Shown here: in pieces, positions 34,147 through 43,759 of the stretch | How positions within the stretch are numbered: position 1 is the first letter of the stretch | How the letters are laid out: the number at the start of each line of letters is the position of its first letter | Source: Longimicrobiales bacterium | GTDB lineage: Bacteria; Gemmatimonadota; Gemmatimonadetes; Longimicrobiales; Gaopeijiaceae | DNA length: 64,000 bases | Direction: 5' to 3' | Assembly (NCBI GenBank): GCA_958295645.1 | Contig: OY282361.1 | Coordinates: 1,330,501-1,394,500, forward strand | The notes under the pieces: generated by a model | What the model saw: the letters and a program-made list of their open reading frames with translations, nothing else | Database searches by the model: none | Told to the model about the DNA's origin: nothing | Program-made: the position numbers and the translations under genes

Positions 34147-35397
34147 ATGCCCAACGACAAGCATCTGCGTTGCAGCTTCTGCGGCAAGTCGAAGGAGTCG
34201 GTGAAGAAGTTCATCTCCGGGCCCTCCGTCTACATATGCAACGAATGCGTCTCGCTGTGCAACGAAATCCTGGCCGAGGAAGAGGAGCGAGAGACGCAAG
34301 AAGCGCCGTCCACGACGCTGCCGCCCGAAGAGATCAAGGCGTTGCTCGACGAGTACGTGATCGGGCAGGAAGAGGCCAAGAAGTCTCTCGCCGTAGCGGT
34401 GTACAACCACTACCGCCGCGTCAACGCCAAAGGAGTGGTGGACGACGTCGAAGTGGACAAGTCCAACCTGCTTCTGGTAGGCCCCACCGGAGTCGGAAAG
34501 ACGCTCTTGGCCCAGACGCTGGCCCGCATTCTTCAGGTGCCGTTCACCATAGCCGACGCCACGACGCTGACCGAGGCGGGGTACGTGGGCGAGGACGTCG
34601 AAAACATTCTCGTGCGGCTCCTGCAAGTGAGCGACTTCAACTTGGCGAACTGCGAGCAAGGCATCGTCTACATCGACGAGTTGGACAAGATCGCGCGCAA
34701 GTCGGAGAATCCGTCGATCACGAGGGACGTGTCCGGCGAGGGCGTCCAGCAAGCGCTTCTCAAGATATTGGAAGGCACGACGGCCAGCGTGCCGCCCCGG
34801 GGAGGGCGCAAGCATCCGCAGCAGGAATACATTCAGATCAACACGCGCAACGTCCTGTTCATCTGCGGCGGCGCCTTCGACGGCATCGAAGACGTCATCG
34901 AGCAGCGCATGGGTCGCCGAAAGATCGGATTCGGCGAGGCGAACGAGGCGACCGCGGAGTGGCGTTCGGGCGGCGGCTCCGACACCATGAGGCACCTGGA
35001 GCCGGACGACTTGCAGCGCTTCGGACTGATTCCCGAGCTGGTGGGACGCCTGCCGGTGACCGTCGCGCTGGACGACCTGGACGAAGAGGAGCTCGTGCGC
35101 ATTCTTCAGGAACCCAAGAACGCTCTCGTCAAGCAGTACAAGAAGATGTTCGAGATGGACGGCATCGGTCTGACCTTCGACCCGGGAGCGCTGCGCAAGA
35201 TCGCCGAGCTGACCTTGAAACGGAGCACTGGAGCGCGGGGGCTGCGCGCCGTGCTGGAAAAGATCATGCGGGACGTGATGTTCGAGCTGCCGTCCCGCAG
35301 CGACGTGAAGGAAGTGGTGGTGACTCCCGAATGCGTGACCAACGGGATTCCGCCGCTCCTGGTTCTGCGGCCGGAGGCGCGGAGAAAAGAAGCCTGA
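34147..35397 (+). CDS. clpX: ATP-dependent Clp protease ATP-binding subunit ClpX
   Basis: A 416-residue AAA+ unfoldase. The N-terminal zinc-binding domain has Cys9, 12, 31 and 34. Walker A is GPTGVGKT, Walker [10 protein letters not shown], and the pore loop is GYVGEDVE, with [22 protein letters not shown] and the IGF loop [10 protein letters not shown] that docks ClpP. GGGAGG precedes ATG 34147, ten bases after clpP. Confidence 0.97.
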
Positions 35398-35401
35398 GCG
35401 G

Positions 35402-37834
35402 ATGGCGACGCTCCACCGGGTAGACGGCACCGTTTCAGTCCCGGCCGAACTCCCGCTCATTGCCTTGCGGGACTTGGTGTACTTCCCGTACATGGTGTTG
35501 CCGTTGCTCATCGGGCGGCCCAAGTCGGTCGCTTCGCTGAAGAAGGCGGAAGAAGGCGGCGGCTTGGCGCTCGTGGCGGCCCAGAAGGATCCGAACGTGG
35601 CCGAGCCGAGCGAAGACGACGTGCACCGCTCGGGGACGGTGGTGCGCGTCCTGCAGACGACGCGCCTGGCGGACGGGACCATGCGCGTGGTGCTCGAAGG
35701 GTTGGGGCGGGCCCGCGTCGAACGGCGCCTGCCCTGCGGCGAGGCTCTCTGCGCCGAGGTCGCTCTGCTCTCCGAGTGGGAGCGCGAGAAGGAGGACGGC
35801 CGCGATCTCGGCGTGGAGGCGGACGGCGTCCAGGAAGTGAAGAGGTTGTTCCGCGAGTACGTGCGCTTGTCGGAGCAGATGCCGCCCGAGGTGGCCGGAG
35901 TCGCGGACGAGGCGGCCGACGGCGTTCAGTTGTCGCACCTGATCGCCGGGCACCTGCTCGTGGGCACCGCCGAGAAGCAGGAACTTCTGGAGGCCGCCGA
36001 TCTCGTGCGGCGGTATGCCGTTCTGCGCGAAATCCTGGTGCGCGAGGTCGAGATTCTCCGCATCCAAGAGAAGGTGAGCGGCCGTCTTCGCCTGCGCGGC
36101 GAGGGCGGTCCTCCCGACACGTTCCTGGAGGAGGCCGGCAAGGGCGGCGTGGGCGGCGTGGGTGCGCCGGAGTGGAGGGAGATGGCGCGCGCCGTGGCGG
36201 AGGCCGACCTGCCGTCGCACGCCCAGGAACGGGCCGAGCGGGAGCTGGAGCGGCTCGGGAAGCTGAACCCGATGGCGCCCGAAGCGTCGGTGGTGCGCGC
36301 CTACCTGGAGTGGATCACTGCGTTGCCATGGCAATGCGAGACGGAGGACAACCAAGACGTGGGCCACGCGGCGCAGGTTCTCGACGCCGAGCACTACGGC
36401 CTGCGCGAAGTCAAGGAACGCATTCTCGACCACATCGCCGTGCTGTCGCTGGCGGGCACGCTCGCGGGGCCGGTTCTCTTCCTCGCGGGACCCCCGGGAG
36501 TGGGCAAGACGTCGCTGGGACGCAGCATCGCCAACTGCCTGGAACGGAAGTTCGTGCGCGTGAGCTTGGGCGGGATGCGGGACGAAGCCGAGATCCGCGG
36601 GCACCGGCGGACCTACGTCGGCGCGCTGCCGGGGCGCGTCATCCAAGGGATGCGCAAGGCCGGATCGCGCAATCCCGTCTTCCTGCTCGACGAGATGGAC
36701 AAGCTGGCGCGGGATTTCCACGGCGACCCCGGCGCGGCCCTCCTGGAGGTGCTGGACCCCGAGCAGAACCACGCCTTCGCCGACCACTACCTGGAACTGG
36801 AGTTCGATCTCTCGCAGGTGCTGTTCATCGCGACGGCGAACACGTTGGGCGAAGTGCCGGGGCCGTTGAGGGACCGCATGGAGGTCATCCGCCTGCCCGG
36901 CTACCTGGACACGGAGAAGAAGGCGATCGCGCGCCAGTTTCTGTGGCCCAAGCTGGTGGCGCGCCACGGCATCGAGCCCTATTCGCCCGAGATTGCGGAC
37001 GAGGCGATCGAGGCGATCATCGCCAACTATACGCGAGAGGCGGGGGTGCGCGAGCTGGAGCGGCGGCTGTCGCGGGTGGCGCGCAAGCTGGCTCGGAGAG
37101 TGGCGGGGGGCGGGGCGAGCCGGGAGGGTCTGGCCACGCCGCCGAAGGTGGAGCCGGGCGGGTTGCCGGCGTTGTTGGGGCCTCCGGCGCACCTGCCCGC
37201 GCAAGCCGGGGGCGGGGCCGACCGCCGGGGCATCGCGAGGGGCTTGGCGTGGACCGCGGCCGGCGGAGAGGTGATCGACGTGGAGGTGGCCGTCGTGCCG
37301 GGTTCGGGCAAGGTTCAGTTGACCGGGACGCTGGGCGACGTCATGAAGGAATCGGCGTTCGCGGCCGTGACCTATGCGAGGTCCAGGGCCAAGTTGCTGG
37401 GCATCTCCGAGCACTTCCACAAGTCGATGGACCTGCACATTCACATCCCGGAAGGCGCGACGCCGAAGGACGGCCCGTCGGCCGGCATCACGATCGCGGC
37501 TGCTCTGGTCTCGGCTTTGACGGACGCGCCCACTCGGGCGGACGTGGCCATGACGGGCGAAATCACGTTGCGCGGCCGCGTGCTGATCGTCGGAGGGGTG
37601 CGGGAGAAGGCCGTGGCCGCCTTGCGGGCGGGGATGAAGCGGATTCTGTTGCCTGCGGCCAACGCCGGGGACGCGGAACGGTTGCCGGCCGAGGTGCGGG
37701 AGAACGTGGAGCTGGTCCCGGTGGAGACGATGGAGCAGGTGCTGGGCGAGGCGTTGGGGACGTGGCAGGCGGGCGTGCGGCCGGGCCAGGCGAGTGCGGG
37801 GCTGGGGGTCGGGGTTGCGGCGGGGGTGTCGTGA
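35402..37834 (+). CDS. lon: ATP-dependent protease Lon
   Basis: An 810-residue LonA protease. The N-terminal LAN domain starts [23 protein letters not shown] (landmark L-P-L-x-x-L-R-D). The AAA+ module has [11 protein letters not shown] and [10 protein letters not shown]. The proteolytic domain has the Ser693 (PKDGPSAG) / Lys736 (REKAVAA) dyad, 43 residues apart as in the E. coli enzyme. A Gly-rich insertion near residues 570-610 ([21 protein letters not shown]) separates the AAA+ and protease domains. The C-terminal 25 residues are a Gly/Val-rich extension. It starts four bases after clpX. Confidence 0.96.
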
Positions 37835-37883: not shown

Positions 37884-38483
37884 GTGATCGTCCGGAGCGT
37901 GGAGTTCGCGGGTTCCGTCGCGGCCGAGGGGCAACCGCCGCCGGGAGGACTTCCGCAGGTTGCGTTCGCGGGGCGTTCCAACGTGGGCAAGTCCTCGCTC
38001 GTCAACCGGTTGCTGGGGAGACCGCGGCGCAAGATCGCCCGCGTGTCCGCCGTGCCCGGAAAGACGCAGACGCTGAATTTCTACCGAGTGAACGACGCCT
38101 TCTTTCTGGTCGACCTGCCTGGGTTGGGATACGCGAGGGCTCCCGTGGCCTTGCGGTCGTCCTGGTTGCGGCTGGTGCGGAGCTACGTGTCGGGAAGCAC
38201 GGCCTTGAAGGGCGTGGCCTACTTGGTGGACTCGCGGCATCCCCCCATGGCCGCCGACCGCGAGTTCGTGGACTACTTGGCCGACGCCGGCGTCCCGACG
38301 CTGGTCGTGCTCACCAAGGTGGACAAGCTGAAGCGGCGGGAGCGGGAGCGGGGGCTCGCTGGGCCGGTCTGCGAGGGGCTCGGCGTCGACAAGGAGCAGG
38401 TGGTGGGGAGTTCGGCTCGCACAGGCGAGGGAACGGAGGCGCTGCTGGAAGCGGTGGCCGAGCTGTTGGGAACGGGGTCGTGA
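37884..38483 (+). CDS. engB: Ribosome biogenesis GTP-binding protein EngB (YsxC/YihA)
   Basis: A 199-residue small GTPase: [18 protein letters not shown] (G1), [12 protein letters not shown] (G2), [13 protein letters not shown] (G3), [11 protein letters not shown] (G4, TKxD) and SSARTGEG (G5). It assists 50S subunit assembly. GTG 37884 is chosen because it immediately precedes the family start '[11 protein letters not shown]'; other GTGs nearer lon would add Gly-rich residues. Its TGA overlaps the GTG of the next gene, beginning a coupled chain that leads to mcrB. Confidence 0.92.
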
Positions 38484-39097
38484 GGCGGAGGCCGGGGGGA
38501 GTTGCTTGCGTTCTCGTGTCTGCCGGACTAGCTGTGGCTTGGGCCTGCGCGCCGGCTCGGTCGGCGGACAGCGCTCCGAGGCCGGTCACGGGGGCAGATC
38601 GCTTGGCTGCTCCGCCCTTGTCCGCTCGCTCGGGGTCGCTCGGACAGGGTCAGATTTCGGTGCGGACTAACGCCGGCGCCTTGCGAATCGAGGTCACCCC
38701 GCTGGACGACTGGGTGCTGGGCGCGGCCGCACCGGACACGCAGGCACGCCTCCTGCGCATCCGGGACGCGCACGGACGCGAGGCCGCTAGCCGCTCCGGG
38801 GTTGGAGACCCGGCCCTCTTCCTGGTGTCGTTCTCGAGCGCACGGGCGGGCGTCGCGTTTCAGCCCGAAGACCTGCACCTGGTCGCCCGGGGCCTGCGCG
38901 AACGCCCCCTCGCGATCCTCGCCGTCACTCCCGCTTGGGGGAGCCACCGGCTGGAGTCGCAGAGCAGCGCGGTGGCGTTGTACGCCTACGACGCGGTGGA
39001 TGTCAAGCGAGACTTCGTCGTAAGCTACCAGGGCAACGAAGACGGCTCCTGGGCCGACAAGGTGACCCTGATCGAAGCGGAACGGAACAAGAAATGA
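38480..39097 (+). CDS. Hypothetical secreted protein between engB and mcrB
   Basis: A 205-residue product from GTG 38480, overlapping the engB TGA (GTGA). The N-terminal 30 residues are signal-like (VACVLVSAGLAVAWACAPARS), with a Cys that does not fit the lipobox well. The remainder reads as a beta-rich domain: ISVRTNAGALRIEVTPLDDWVLGAA, then LFLVSFSSARAGVAFQPEDLHLVARGL (V-S-F and F-x-P-E-D-L landmarks) and KRDFVVSYQGNEDGSWADKVTLIEAE. Base composition resembles the chromosome, unlike mcrB. Its TGA overlaps the mcrB ATG (ATGA). I recognise no family; its job in or outside the restriction system is unknown. Confidence 0.7.
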   Translation: MRRRPGGVACVLVSAGLAVAWACAPARSADSAPRPVTGADRLAAPPLSARSGSLGQGQISVRTNAGALRIEVTPLDDWVLGAAAPDTQARLLRIRDAHGREAASRSGVGDPALFLVSFSSARAGVAFQPEDLHLVARGLRERPLAILAVTPAWGSHRLESQSSAVALYAYDAVDVKRDFVVSYQGNEDGSWADKVTLIEAERNKK

Positions 39098-40476
39098 CAA
39101 CAACCGACAACCGCCTTGCCAAGCTTGCCAACGAACTCTTGTTCGAACCCAGCTTTGTCCAAGAGATCTGGAAACTCTTGGAGGACAAGCGCCAAGTCGT
39201 ATTCTATGGATCGCCCGGCACGGGGAAGACTTACGTCGCTGGGAAACTGGCGGCTTGCCTAGCGGAATCCGAGGACCGTGTGCGCACCGTACAGTTCCAT
39301 CCGTCCTACGCCTACGAGGACTTCGTCCAGGGCTTGCGCCCCGTCTTGGACAGTGGGCAACCGGGGTTCACTCTCCGCGACGGGCCGCTGGTCCAATTCG
39401 CCAAGCAGGCGCAGAACCTGCCCGGACTCCGCCACTTTCTCGTCATCGACGAGATCAACCGGGGCAACTTGGCCAAGGTGTTCGGCGAACTGTACTTCTT
39501 GCTGGAATACCGCGACAAAGCAATGCGACTTCAGTATTCGGACGAGCCCTTTTCTCTGCCGAGAAATCTCTTCGTGATCGGCACTATGAACACGGCGGAT
39601 CGCTCCATCGCCTTGGTGGACCTTGCGTTGCGCCGACGATTCCATTTTGTGGAGTTTCGTCCGGATCGTCCACCCGTTCGAGAGCTTCTCAAGCAATGGC
39701 TGGACAAGAACGTGCCCCGAATGGCATGGGTGGCCCGGCTGGTGGACCAAGCCAACAAGGAGCTTGAGGACTACGACGCGTCCATTGGCCCGAGCTACTT
39801 CATGCGTCGAGACTTGGACTCGGCATGGCTCAAGCGCATATGGAAGCACAGCATCATTCCCTACGTCGAGGAACATCTGCACGGAGACCGAGAACGCCTC
39901 GAGGCGTTCGAACTTGACCGCCTTCTGAGCAAGATCGGTGTGGAACCCGAAGACGATGCCCCGGCGGGAGAGACGGGCCGCCGGCCGAAGGCCAAGTCGG
40001 AGGAAGCGCTAGTGCAGAAGGCCGCCGAATTCGGGCTGGCCGACCTTTGGCAGGACGTGGTCGACAAACTGGGCCCGGACCGTTTTGTACGTGATTGTCG
40101 CAGCTACTGCCTTACGTTCAGAAAACCGTGGCTGTCGTTTTCCGACGCCACTTCGCGTGCATATACGTCCCATTCCGTGAAACTCGCCAGAGAACAAATA
40201 CGTGTCGTGTTCTTCCCGGTGGCCATACGGCTTTGTCACGAACAATTCGAAGAAGCCGCGCAATCGGTCGTCTTCAAGGAAGAAACTCCTCCCAACGCCC
40301 CGCCCCTCGGAGACTTTCAGAAGCAATGGGTTTGTGTCCTCGACAGATCTACATGGAACAGACATCGGGGCACACTGATTGCGCTCGTGAACGCAGTACG
40401 GAAAGCATGGGAGGACAGACGCGCGACACAAGGCGACCGGGGCGACGAGAGCGAACCCGGCGAAGGCGAAGGCTAG
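39094..40476 (+). CDS. mcrB: McrB-like AAA+ GTPase of a type IV restriction system
   Basis: A 460-residue protein from ATG 39094, in the stop of the preceding gene. The AAA+ core shows Walker A GSPGTGKT at 39-46, Walker B LVIDE at 116-120, and the McrB hallmarks NRGNLAKVFGEL (122-133) and MNTADRSI (165-172), with the arginine pair RRRFHF. McrB-type motors use GTP to drive McrC nuclease subunits on modified DNA. There is no N-terminal modified-base-reader domain; the AAA+ module starts near residue 15. A C-terminal about 150-residue region (from KAAEFGLADLWQDVV) is extra, with five Cys/His-rich turns and AT-richer codons. G+C is lower than in engB and lon, suggesting acquisition. Confidence 0.88.
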   Translation: MTTTDNRLAKLANELLFEPSFVQEIWKLLEDKRQVVFYGSPGTGKTYVAGKLAACLAESEDRVRTVQFHPSYAYEDFVQGLRPVLDSGQPGFTLRDGPLVQFAKQAQNLPGLRHFLVIDEINRGNLAKVFGELYFLLEYRDKAMRLQYSDEPFSLPRNLFVIGTMNTADRSIALVDLALRRRFHFVEFRPDRPPVRELLKQWLDKNVPRMAWVARLVDQANKELEDYDASIGPSYFMRRDLDSAWLKRIWKHSIIPYVEEHLHGDRERLEAFELDRLLSKIGVEPEDDAPAGETGRRPKAKSEEALVQKAAEFGLADLWQDVVDKLGPDRFVRDCRSYCLTFRKPWLSFSDATSRAYTSHSVKLAREQIRVVFFPVAIRLCHEQFEEAAQSVVFKEETPPNAPPLGDFQKQWVCVLDRSTWNRHRGTLIALVNAVRKAWEDRRATQGDRGDESEPGEGEG

Positions 40477-40490
40477 AAGGCCTTCTCGTG

Positions 40491-41828
40491 ATGCGGGAGA
40501 TCGACCTTCGGGAGCATGTCGAGAGCGAACCAACGCAACTGTCGCCCACGGAGCGGGGCGACTTGGACTTGCGTCGGCAGAAAGAGTTGCTGGGACAGAA
40601 GGTACTCGACGTCAATCCCGTTGCAGGCGGGAACGACCAGTACTGCTTGACTCCCGGCTCCGTCGTGGGCGCCTTTCGAATCGGCGACTTGGACGTCTCG
40701 ATTCGCCCCAAGCTGGAGGTCTCGCGGGTTCTGTACTTGGCTTCTTACGCCATGGGCGCATTTAGGCTTCGAGACAAGGACGCCTTCGACTTCGAGAGAG
40801 CGGATTCGCTGGTGGAGGCACTTGCGATGGCGTTGGCGACGGCGGCAGATCGCGCGTTCGCCCGGGGACTGCTACAGGGGTACAGAACCGAAGAAGAAGC
40901 ATTGTGCACAGTGCGAGGCAGGATGCGCATTGAGGAACAATTTCGGCGCAGGTACGGAGCGCCGTTGCCGGTGGAGGTGCGCTACGACGACTTCACCACC
41001 GACTTCTTGCCCAACCGGCTAGTCAAGGCGGCCGTCTTTGCCTTGGGGCGGATGCGGATTCGCCATCCCCCTTCCCGCGCTGCGTTGGGGCGCATTTGCG
41101 CTCGGCTGGACAACGTGCGGCTCAAGGAGTTCCCGCCCAATCGCGTGCCCGAGGTCGAGTTCGACCGGCTGAACGAGCACTACCGGCAGGTCGTGGCGTT
41201 GTCGCGACTCGTTCTGCAGCAGGCGTCGTTCGAGGCGGCGCGAGGATCCGTGCGCGCGGGCCGAGTGCAGGAAGAGGACGGGCAGGCCGGCAAGGCGTCG
41301 TTCGAGGCGGCGCGAGGATCCGTGCGCGCGTACGGGTTTCTCATCGACATGAACGTCGTGTTCCAAGAGTTCTTGACGCGGGCGTTGCGAGAAAAGCTCG
41401 GGGCTTCGGAACGGACGTTGCGCTCCGACCGCGGCTTTCAGGCGACCACTCTGGACGAAGATGGACGGGTTCGTCTCCATCCCGACCTGTCCTGGTGGGA
41501 GGGCGGCCGGTGCCTCTTCGTGGGAGACGCGAAGTACAAGCGGATGAAGGACGAGCGGATTCCCAACGCCGACCTGTACCAACTCCTGGCGTACGTCACC
41601 GCGCTTGATCTTCCCGGCGGCCTCCTCGTCTACGCCAAGGGAGAAACGGAGCCGGTGAAGCACCGCGTGCGGCACTCGGGCGTGCGCCTCCAGGTCGCCG
41701 CCGTGGACTTGGCCGGCACGATCGACGAACTGCTTGCGAGGGTCGGCGAGATCGCGGGTCAGGTTAAGGAGCTGCGGCGGGAAGCGTACGAGCGAGCGGA
41801 ACGAATCCAGGCAATATCCGCCGCCTGA
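40491..41828 (+). CDS. mcrC: McrC-like PD-(D/E)XK nuclease subunit of the McrBC system
   Basis: A 445-residue protein from ATG 40491 (GTG 40488 is possible), 14 bases after mcrB. The N-terminal domain has the McrC pattern (QYCLTPGSVVGAFRIGDLDVSIRPKL, landmarks V-G-x-F and I-x-P-K). The C-terminal nuclease has HPDLSWWEGGRCLFVGDAKYK, with Asp332, Asp346 and Lys348 as the PD-(D/E)XK residues, then NADLYQLLAY. It cleaves DNA when stimulated by McrB translocation. Residues 245-256 and 269-280 (ASFEAARGSVRA) are an exact repeat from a 38-bp duplication 72 bases apart. Confidence 0.88.
   Translation: MREIDLREHVESEPTQLSPTERGDLDLRRQKELLGQKVLDVNPVAGGNDQYCLTPGSVVGAFRIGDLDVSIRPKLEVSRVLYLASYAMGAFRLRDKDAFDFERADSLVEALAMALATAADRAFARGLLQGYRTEEEALCTVRGRMRIEEQFRRRYGAPLPVEVRYDDFTTDFLPNRLVKAAVFALGRMRIRHPPSRAALGRICARLDNVRLKEFPPNRVPEVEFDRLNEHYRQVVALSRLVLQQASFEAARGSVRAGRVQEEDGQAGKASFEAARGSVRAYGFLIDMNVVFQEFLTRALREKLGASERTLRSDRGFQATTLDEDGRVRLHPDLSWWEGGRCLFVGDAKYKRMKDERIPNADLYQLLAYVTALDLPGGLLVYAKGETEPVKHRVRHSGVRLQVAAVDLAGTIDELLARVGEIAGQVKELRREAYERAERIQAISAA
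41221..41330. repeat. Perfect 38-bp direct repeat, 72-bp period, inside mcrC
   Basis: Copies lie at 41221-41258 and 41293-41330, both reading AGGCGTCGTTCGAGGCGGCG and on to TGCGCGCG. The 72-base period is 24 codons, so gain or loss of one unit keeps the reading frame. Confidence 0.95.
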
Positions 41829-41873
41829 ACGGGGCGCGCGGGTGTGGGCCGACGGTGAAGCTCCCTCCGGTTC

Positions 41874-41904
41874 TTCGGCCATACGGCCGAACCCGCCACG
41901 CGGG
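41874..41904. terminator. Two adjacent hairpins between convergent genes
   Basis: TTCGGCC-ATAC-GGCCGAA (41874-41891) is directly followed by CCCGC-CAC-GCGGG (41892-41904). They lie in the 144-base gap between mcrC and the convergent regulator. Both are perfect stems without a T-run. They could end transcription from either side. Confidence 0.4.
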
Positions 41905-41972
41905 CGTTCGCGCCAGGATCGGAAGCCCGTTCCCTCGGCCGTGCAGCCGCACCGAACGGCGATCCGGGCCGC

Positions 41973-43748
<1,776 letters not shown>

Positions 43749-43759
43749 GTGCGACAATC

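What the first reader, a model, noticed from the sequence alone, without database searches (positions are those of the whole stretch)
38480..41828. McrBC-type restriction pair coupled to engB through a hypothetical secreted protein
engB, the 205-residue gene and mcrB are chained by GTGA and ATGA overlaps, so a defence motor is translated from a housekeeping transcript. The hypothetical gene has host-like composition while mcrB is AT-richer. Either the hypothetical protein is a resident neighbour or it is a new McrBC accessory part.
Basis: partly seen in the sequence, partly recalled or inferred. Interest (0 to 1): 0.5.

Follow-up and report, generated by a model that had tools for sequence, protein, structure and literature searches.

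The report
McrBC inserted beside resident engB lipoprotein
A DNA-cutting defence pair appears to have been inserted into a conserved housekeeping gene block right behind a resident envelope protein gene, so the envelope protein is a bystander; what is unusual is that the defence motor lacks the usual front-end sensor and instead carries a rear domain shared with another kind of nuclease.

Summary
The sequence observation is correct. engB (37884-38483), a 205-codon gene (38480-39097), mcrB (39094-40476) and mcrC (40491-41828) form a same-strand chain with GTGA and ATGA overlaps. The 205-residue family is a predicted Gemmatimonadota lipoprotein family that sits directly behind engB in 36 of 38 relatives' loci and in 59 of 68 loci from a second scan (the sets partly overlap), with mcrB or mcrC in 0 of 38 and 0 of 68. 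The short engB overlap is a conserved trait of that resident pair. The mcrBC pair is a patchy, AT-richer insertion between this gene and the convergent sigma-54 activator that usually follows it; its coupling to the housekeeping transcript is a by-product of where it landed. The motor itself is unusual: an NxxD-type McrB GTPase with no N-terminal specificity domain and a ~175-residue C-terminal domain, homologous (29-34% identity) to the C-terminal half of NucS_C-type nucleases related to the PADLOC candidate PDC-S11. I read it as a relocated target-recognition module (inferred). McrC also carries a 72-bp in-frame insert, half of it resembling an hsp20 gene of the same genome.

The parts
37884..38483 (+). 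engB (ribosome-biogenesis GTPase YihA/YsxC), resident
   Evidence: TIGR03598 1.3e-52; follows clpX (34147-35397) and lon (35402-37834)
38480..39097 (+). 205-residue predicted lipoprotein, confident but unmatched beta-rich model, resident partner of engB
   Evidence: conserved behind engB; Cys23 in 37 of 39; AF2 pLDDT 87.4; no Pfam/PADLOC/NCBIfam/PHROG match
39094..40476 (+). mcrB-like GTPase, 460 aa, no N-terminal specificity domain
   Evidence: AAA_5 3e-19; E. coli McrB 8.8e-46 over residues 9-268; motifs GSPGTGKT, VIDEINRGN, MNTADRS read
39946..40473 (+). C-terminal domain of mcrB (residues 285-460), homologous to the C-terminal half of NucS_C-type nucleases
   Evidence: 29-34% identity, 28 invariant columns in 5 sequences
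40491..41828 (+). mcrC (PF10117, PD-(D/E)xK-type nuclease motif), 445 aa
   Evidence: PF10117 2.5e-49; aligned to E. coli McrC; HPDL...GDAKYK read
41223..41330 (+). 36-bp perfect direct repeat (41223-41258, 41295-41330) around a 36-bp insert (41259-41294) that matches an hsp20 gene of the same genome in 33 of 36 bases
41973..43757 (-). sigma-54 activator, the resident convergent gene that usually follows the 205-residue gene directly
   Evidence: Sigma54_activat 1.6e-70; within 400 bp of the lipoprotein stop in 29 of the 35 relatives' loci in which it was found, of 38 examined; here 2.9 kb away

Best explanation
A horizontally acquired mcrBC cassette (39094-41828) was inserted between two resident convergent genes, the engB-coupled lipoprotein gene and a sigma-54 activator gene. 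Its mcrB start codon lies on the lipoprotein stop codon, so mcrB is probably read by translational coupling from the clpX-lon-engB-lipoprotein transcript (inferred). The lipoprotein has no part in restriction. The pair works as a DNA-targeting McrBC nuclease: a GTP-driven McrB hexamer translocates and activates the McrC nuclease (motifs shown by sequence, mechanism by homology). Because nothing precedes the GTPase domain, target recognition is most likely done by the C-terminal ~175-residue domain that McrB shares with NucS_C-type nucleases (homology shown; recognition role inferred). The confidence below is for the insertion and bystander reading; the recognition step alone I put at about 0.4.
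For: Resident lipoprotein: engB directly upstream in 36 of 38 relatives' loci (one contig-cut, one rearranged) and 59 of 68 loci of a second scan (2 contig-cut, 7 with clpX directly upstream); mcrB and mcrC 0 of 38 and 0 of 68. Start nearest the engB stop at -8 to -1 nt in 26 of 36 (22 of them exactly -4) and within 50 nt in 36 of 36 (choosing the nearest start favours overlap). Sigma-54 activator within 400 bp of the lipoprotein stop in 29 of 35 loci where it was found. Patchy mcrBC: McrC match in 4 of 58 and McrB in 5 of 58 genomes, both with the window's own; McrB at 1e-30 in 24 of 298 phylum genomes, the window's own included, the nearest 50% identical. AT-richer mcrB and mcrC. GTPase and nuclease matches. 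C-terminal domain.
Against: No target-site repeat or mobile element was found at the two junctions (two shared 9-mers, where I estimate about 0.5 by chance with equal base use), so 'insertion' rests on comparison, not on a footprint. In 3 of 38 loci (L039, L047, L057) the activator was not found at all, and in 6 of 35 it is 0.6-5.1 kb away, so the slot is not fixed. The fusion of this domain to a McrB was seen only in this genome: 0 of 29 loci around the domain in 12 other genomes hold a McrB GTPase or McrC, so a truncated or decaying mcrB cannot be excluded. The structure of the domain could not be predicted (pLDDT 54). Promoter scan uninformative (0 sigma-70-like sites, 0.3 expected). No assay exists.
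Confidence: 0.85

Rival explanations
1. The 205-residue protein is a new accessory part of the McrBC system.
For: Same strand and ATGA overlap with mcrB.
Against: mcrB/mcrC in 0 of 38 and 0 of 68 loci that hold the family; family member or engB in 0 of 39 mcrB loci (short flanks); signal-peptide-like start and conserved cysteine place it outside the cytoplasm.
Confidence: 0.03
2. mcrB is a truncated remnant: the insertion cut off an N-terminal specificity domain, the ATG at 39094 is incidental, and the system is inactive or promiscuous.
For: The nearest phylum relative (L201, 924 aa, 49-50% identical over the GTPase) has about 640 residues before the GTPase; the second mcrB of the same genome has an N-terminal Mrr_N domain; mcrC carries a 24-residue insert.
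Against: GTPase and nuclease motifs are intact and the frames open; the ORF starts at a natural domain edge; a whole extra domain is fused at the other end.
Confidence: 0.25
3. The C-terminal domain is not a specificity module but an oligomerisation or regulatory domain, and recognition is done by an unlinked protein or the N-terminal part of McrC.
For: McrC here has about 70 residues before the part that aligns with E. coli McrC (from residue 72); no structure for the domain.
Against: The same domain sits behind a NucS_C nuclease in other Gemmatimonadota, where a target-binding role is the simplest reading.
Confidence: 0.35

Closest known systems
Canonical McrBC type IV restriction (E. coli McrB/McrC)
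   Same: AAA+ GTPase with Walker A, Walker B and NxxD motif; separate downstream McrC with PF10117 and PD-(D/E)xK-type motif
   Different: No N-terminal ADAM/DUF3578 or other specificity domain; extra C-terminal domain of about 175 residues; 24-residue insert in McrC
NucS_C-type single-gene nucleases, PADLOC candidate PDC-S11
   Same: Their C-terminal half is homologous to the McrB C-terminal domain; L194 hits PDC-S11 at 3.5e-38 and NucS_C at 2.6e-12
   Different: There the domain follows a nuclease, not a GTPase; the window domain alone has no PADLOC hit
CoCoNuT systems (PMC11090510, passages read)
   Same: Distant McrB/McrC relatives; a passage reports C-terminal helix-turn-helix fusions on type III-A McrB homologues
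   Different: The window McrB has the NxxD, not the NxD, motif

Membership tests
McrBC type IV restriction | McrB-type GTPase with Walker A, Walker B and NxxD signature | tested here: met
   GSPGTGKT, VIDEINRGN, MNTADRS in the translation; 8.8e-46 to E. coli McrB
McrBC type IV restriction | Partner McrC with DUF2357-type part and PD-(D/E)xK nuclease | tested here: met
   PF10117 2.5e-49; alignment to E. coli McrC through the HPDL...DAKYK region
McrBC type IV restriction | Dedicated specificity domain (N-terminal in E. coli McrB) | tested here: inconclusive
   No N-terminal domain (GTPase match starts at residue 9); the C-terminal domain is a candidate without proof
McrBC type IV restriction | Restriction of modified DNA | not testable with these tools
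   needs an experiment
CoCoNuT | NxD variant of the McrB GTPase motif | tested here: not met
   MNTADRS is NxxD; definition from passages of PMC11090510
McrBC accessory protein (205-residue gene) | Occurs with mcrBC rather than with engB | tested here: not met
PDC-S11 / NucS_C nuclease (C-terminal domain of mcrB) | NucS_C nuclease domain in the same protein | tested here: not met
   no NucS_C among the 25 families shown for P0002 nor for its C-terminal part alone; only the C-terminal half is shared
DUF4268 (C-terminal domain of mcrB) | Profile similarity to PF14088 members | tested here: inconclusive
   hhalign probability 0.1% on 5- and 9-row alignments; thin alignments
DUF5655 (C-terminal domain of mcrB) | Profile similarity to PF18899 members | tested here: inconclusive
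   hhalign probability 0.7% on 5- and 10-row alignments; thin alignments
Bacterial lipoprotein (205-residue gene) | Signal peptide ending in a lipobox cysteine | tested here: inconclusive
   Cys23 conserved in 37 of 39, but the window's own box AWAC is weak and no dedicated predictor was run

The most novel reading that the evidence does not exclude
The C-terminal domain of this McrB is a portable, uncharacterised target-recognition module that has been moved between NucS_C-type nucleases and an McrB GTPase, giving an McrBC system with its sensor at the rear instead of the front.
Probability: 0.35. Interest if true: 0.5.

Novelty: new variant of a known kind. Interest (0 to 1): 0.3.

Why it matters
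It settles a plausible but wrong 'new accessory part' call by synteny, and shows how a defence cassette can end up translationally chained to a housekeeping operon simply by landing behind a resident overlap pair. If the C-terminal domain is a recognition module, it adds to McrBC a sensor type that the libraries searched here do not name, and it gives a ready test, since the same domain also sits on small NucS_C-type nucleases.

Tried and rejected
Accessory-part reading: rejected by synteny. Mobile-element footprint at the mcrBC borders: shared k-mers and inverted repeats looked for in 38901-39200 against 41701-42150, nothing of 10 bases or more, two shared 9-mers. Relation of the McrB C-terminal domain to DUF4268 or DUF5655: no support by hhalign. 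Homologues of that domain: no match in plasmids or phages at E 1, and no confirmed relative in a pattern scan of viral contigs; one solved-structure match at E 0.82, disregarded. A viral-contig scan with whole McrB confirmed no relative, but whole-McrB tblastn does find GTPase homologues in 20 phage and 324 plasmid records. Structure of the domain from a single sequence: pLDDT 54, unusable, so no fold search was made with it. Fold of the 205-residue protein: best Foldseek match E 3.0e-3 (4eae_B), none at 0.001 or better; best VIA-align Z 6.3, to that Listeria protein and the YcdA lipoprotein of B. subtilis, within the range the tool calls uninformative, so no family is claimed. Profile of the family against solved structures: best E 0.52, T-cell receptor chains, disregarded. 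Pfam on 61 members: two borderline hits to YiiD_C, best 0.0092, disregarded. Papers holding McrB, C-terminal, NucS and fusion together: 0 in the library searched; the listings were seen, and only PMC11090510 was opened, by passages.

Full report
The observation. The window holds, on the + strand, clpX (34147-35397), lon (35402-37834), engB (37884-38483), a 205-codon gene (38480-39097), mcrB (39094-40476) and mcrC (40491-41828), then, on the - strand, a sigma-54 activator (41973-43757), gcvT and otc. The overlaps GTGA (engB/205) and ATGA (205/mcrB) are there letter for letter. Names rest on TIGR03598 for engB (1.3e-52), PF10117 for McrC (2.5e-49), E. coli McrB structures for McrB (8.8e-46 over residues 9-268), and Pfam domains for lon and for clpX, the activator, gcvT and otc. 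mcrB and mcrC are lower in GC (58.6% and 64.3%) than the 205-codon gene (69.7%) and the other genes measured (69-71%; clpX 62.2%). The third-position GC of the 205-codon gene (80.1%) is nearer mcrC (79.1%) than lon or engB (87-90%), which I count slightly against its being host-like; synteny outweighs it.

The 205-residue gene is a resident. In 58 genomes, the window's own included, 39 have one match each and 19 have none. I fetched the 38 foreign loci. engB lies directly upstream on the same strand in 36; one locus (L049) ends at a contig edge and one (L070) has engB in convergent orientation. mcrB or mcrC was found in 0 of 38. A scan of named genomes with a sub-alignment of the family gave 68 loci, most of them titled as Gemmatimonadota-type MAGs and four titled Gammaproteobacteria MAGs. 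engB is adjacent in 59 of 68; two are contig-cut and seven have clpX directly upstream without engB; mcrB or mcrC in 0 of 68. Two of the genomes with this block, G011 and G025, do have McrBC-like genes elsewhere.

The overlap with engB is conserved. In the 36 loci the possible start nearest the engB stop lies -8 to -1 nt from it in 26 (22 of them at -4) and within 50 nt in all 36. Taking the nearest start favours overlap, so the figure is an upper estimate. Of 38 loci the sigma-54 activator was found downstream in 35, and in 29 of those it lies within 400 bp of the lipoprotein stop. In the window 2.9 kb intervene: the mcrBC pair and 144 bp. The slot varies elsewhere too: in 6 of 35 the activator is 0.6-5.1 kb away; L040, for instance, has one 277-codon ORF on the same strand there.

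What the resident protein is. Cys23 is kept in 37 of 39 sequences, at the end of a signal-peptide-like stretch, so I call it a predicted lipoprotein; the window's own box (AWAC) is weak. AlphaFold2 on 61 sequences gives pLDDT 87.4, confident from about residue 51 on, with nine strands and two main helices; that it is an Ig-like sandwich is my guess from its weak matches. Foldseek's best is E 3.0e-3 and VIA-align's best Z is 6.3, not informative. No Pfam, PADLOC, NCBIfam or PHROG family fits; among 61 members two have a borderline YiiD_C hit. Its function remains open; an envelope role is the likely one, and nothing ties it to restriction.

The mcrBC pair is acquired. McrC matches occur in 4 of 58 and McrB matches in 5 of 58 genomes, both with the window's own counted. 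In 298 phylum genomes 24, the window's own included, have a McrB match at 1e-30; the nearest other is 50% identical. Plasmid McrB homologues are as close, about 50-52% in Arthrobacter and Streptomyces. Of 39 mcrB loci looked at (34 distinct places, one of them the second system of this genome, most with 1.5-kb flanks), 0 hold engB or the lipoprotein gene and 35 hold a McrC match. No repeat marks the junctions. The window lipoprotein ends three residues after the conserved 'AER', where most relatives run on for several more, so the insertion may have replaced the gene's last codons and created the ATGA overlap; this is inference.

The motor's architecture. McrB has the GSPGTGKT, VIDEINRGN and MNTADRS motifs, hence the NxxD, not the CoCoNuT NxD, type (definition from passages of PMC11090510). 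Its GTPase match begins at residue 9, so there is no room for the N-terminal specificity domain that E. coli McrB has. The nearest phylum relative has about 640 residues there (L201), and the second mcrB of this genome has an N-terminal Mrr_N domain (1e-18). Instead the protein runs on for about 175 residues after the GTPase. None of the 39 other mcrB loci gives a match to that part at E 0.01, nor do plasmids or phages at E 1. Third-position GC is 73.7% in residues 1-285 and 64.0% in 286-460, a weak hint of a different origin.

Where that domain occurs. In 298 phylum genomes a single-sequence search finds it in 7 including the window's own, and a profile in 10 at 0.01, the tenth (G114, 0.0076) doubtful; in 394 genomes of the class, 12 at 1e-5 with the window's own. 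I took the 29 loci held for the 12 other genomes (several loci repeat one place). A McrB GTPase or McrC was found in 0 of 29; the nuclease half of L194 was found in 18 of 29, that is in 8 of the 12 genomes, in several of them only as a piece. Four loci that look intact (L194, L195, L196, L198) were scanned as proteins of 325-372 residues (the start of L196 is the ORF finder's and that of L198 was shortened by me). All four begin with a NucS_C domain (9.2e-13 to 8.6e-9). Three were scanned against PADLOC and hit PDC-S11 at 3.5e-38 to 2.1e-31, mostly through the nuclease half, with weaker hits to PDC-S18 and PDC-S02. Identity to the window domain is 29-34%, with 28 invariant columns in five sequences. 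Other genomes hold broken or partial pieces. DUF4268 and DUF5655 were tested as relatives without support. I propose that the domain recognises the target in both settings. That step is inferred, at about 40%.

How it most likely works. mcrB and mcrC are read from the resident transcript or a weak internal start (no sigma-70-like site was found, which says little in this phylum). McrB hexamers, powered by GTP, engage target nucleic acid through the C-terminal domain and activate McrC, whose HPDL...GDAKYK motif is intact. The lipoprotein is exported and uninvolved. Motifs and synteny are shown; hexamers, coupling and recognition are inferred.

A side finding in mcrC. A perfect 36-bp direct repeat (41223-41258 and 41295-41330) flanks a 36-bp insert. 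Without the 72 bp the spacing matches that of the L201 McrC (compared by eye). The insert matches 33 of 36 bases of a gene at C1:81226-81260 of the same genome that encodes an Hsp20 protein (PF00011 6.1e-22). It looks like a templated insertion with flank duplication, in frame.

Noticed in passing
window 41223-41330: 72-bp in-frame insert in mcrC: a perfect 36-bp direct repeat around 36 bp that match an hsp20 gene of the same genome (C1:81226-81260) in 33 of 36 bases; looks like a templated insertion.
   Followed up: partly
G000:C1 about 1317925-1320245 (L202 7926-10246, - strand): A second McrBC in the same genome about 10 kb upstream of the window start, with an N-terminal Mrr_N domain, next to an AAA_15/AAA_21 gene whose best PADLOC hits are NsnB and AriA.
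   Followed up: partly
L194 3260-4324, L195 4941-5996, L196 4040-5017, L198 2231-3349: NucS_C-type nucleases, PDC-S11-like in the three tested, with an unnamed C-terminal domain shared with the window McrB; other genomes hold partial or broken pieces of such genes.
   Followed up: partly
slot between the lipoprotein gene and the sigma-54 activator, L040, L044, L068, L069, L070, L073: The slot that holds mcrBC here is 0.6-5.1 kb wide in 6 of 35 relatives' loci, so it may be a recurrent insertion place.
   Followed up: no
L140, L146, L150, L151, L152, L156, L185: Seven loci have the lipoprotein gene directly behind clpX with no engB in the fetched stretch; where engB lies in that lineage was not checked.
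   Followed up: no
L125, L128, L129, L131: MAGs titled Gammaproteobacteria carry the Gemmatimonadota-type clpX-engB-lipoprotein block; probably mislabelled.
   Followed up: no
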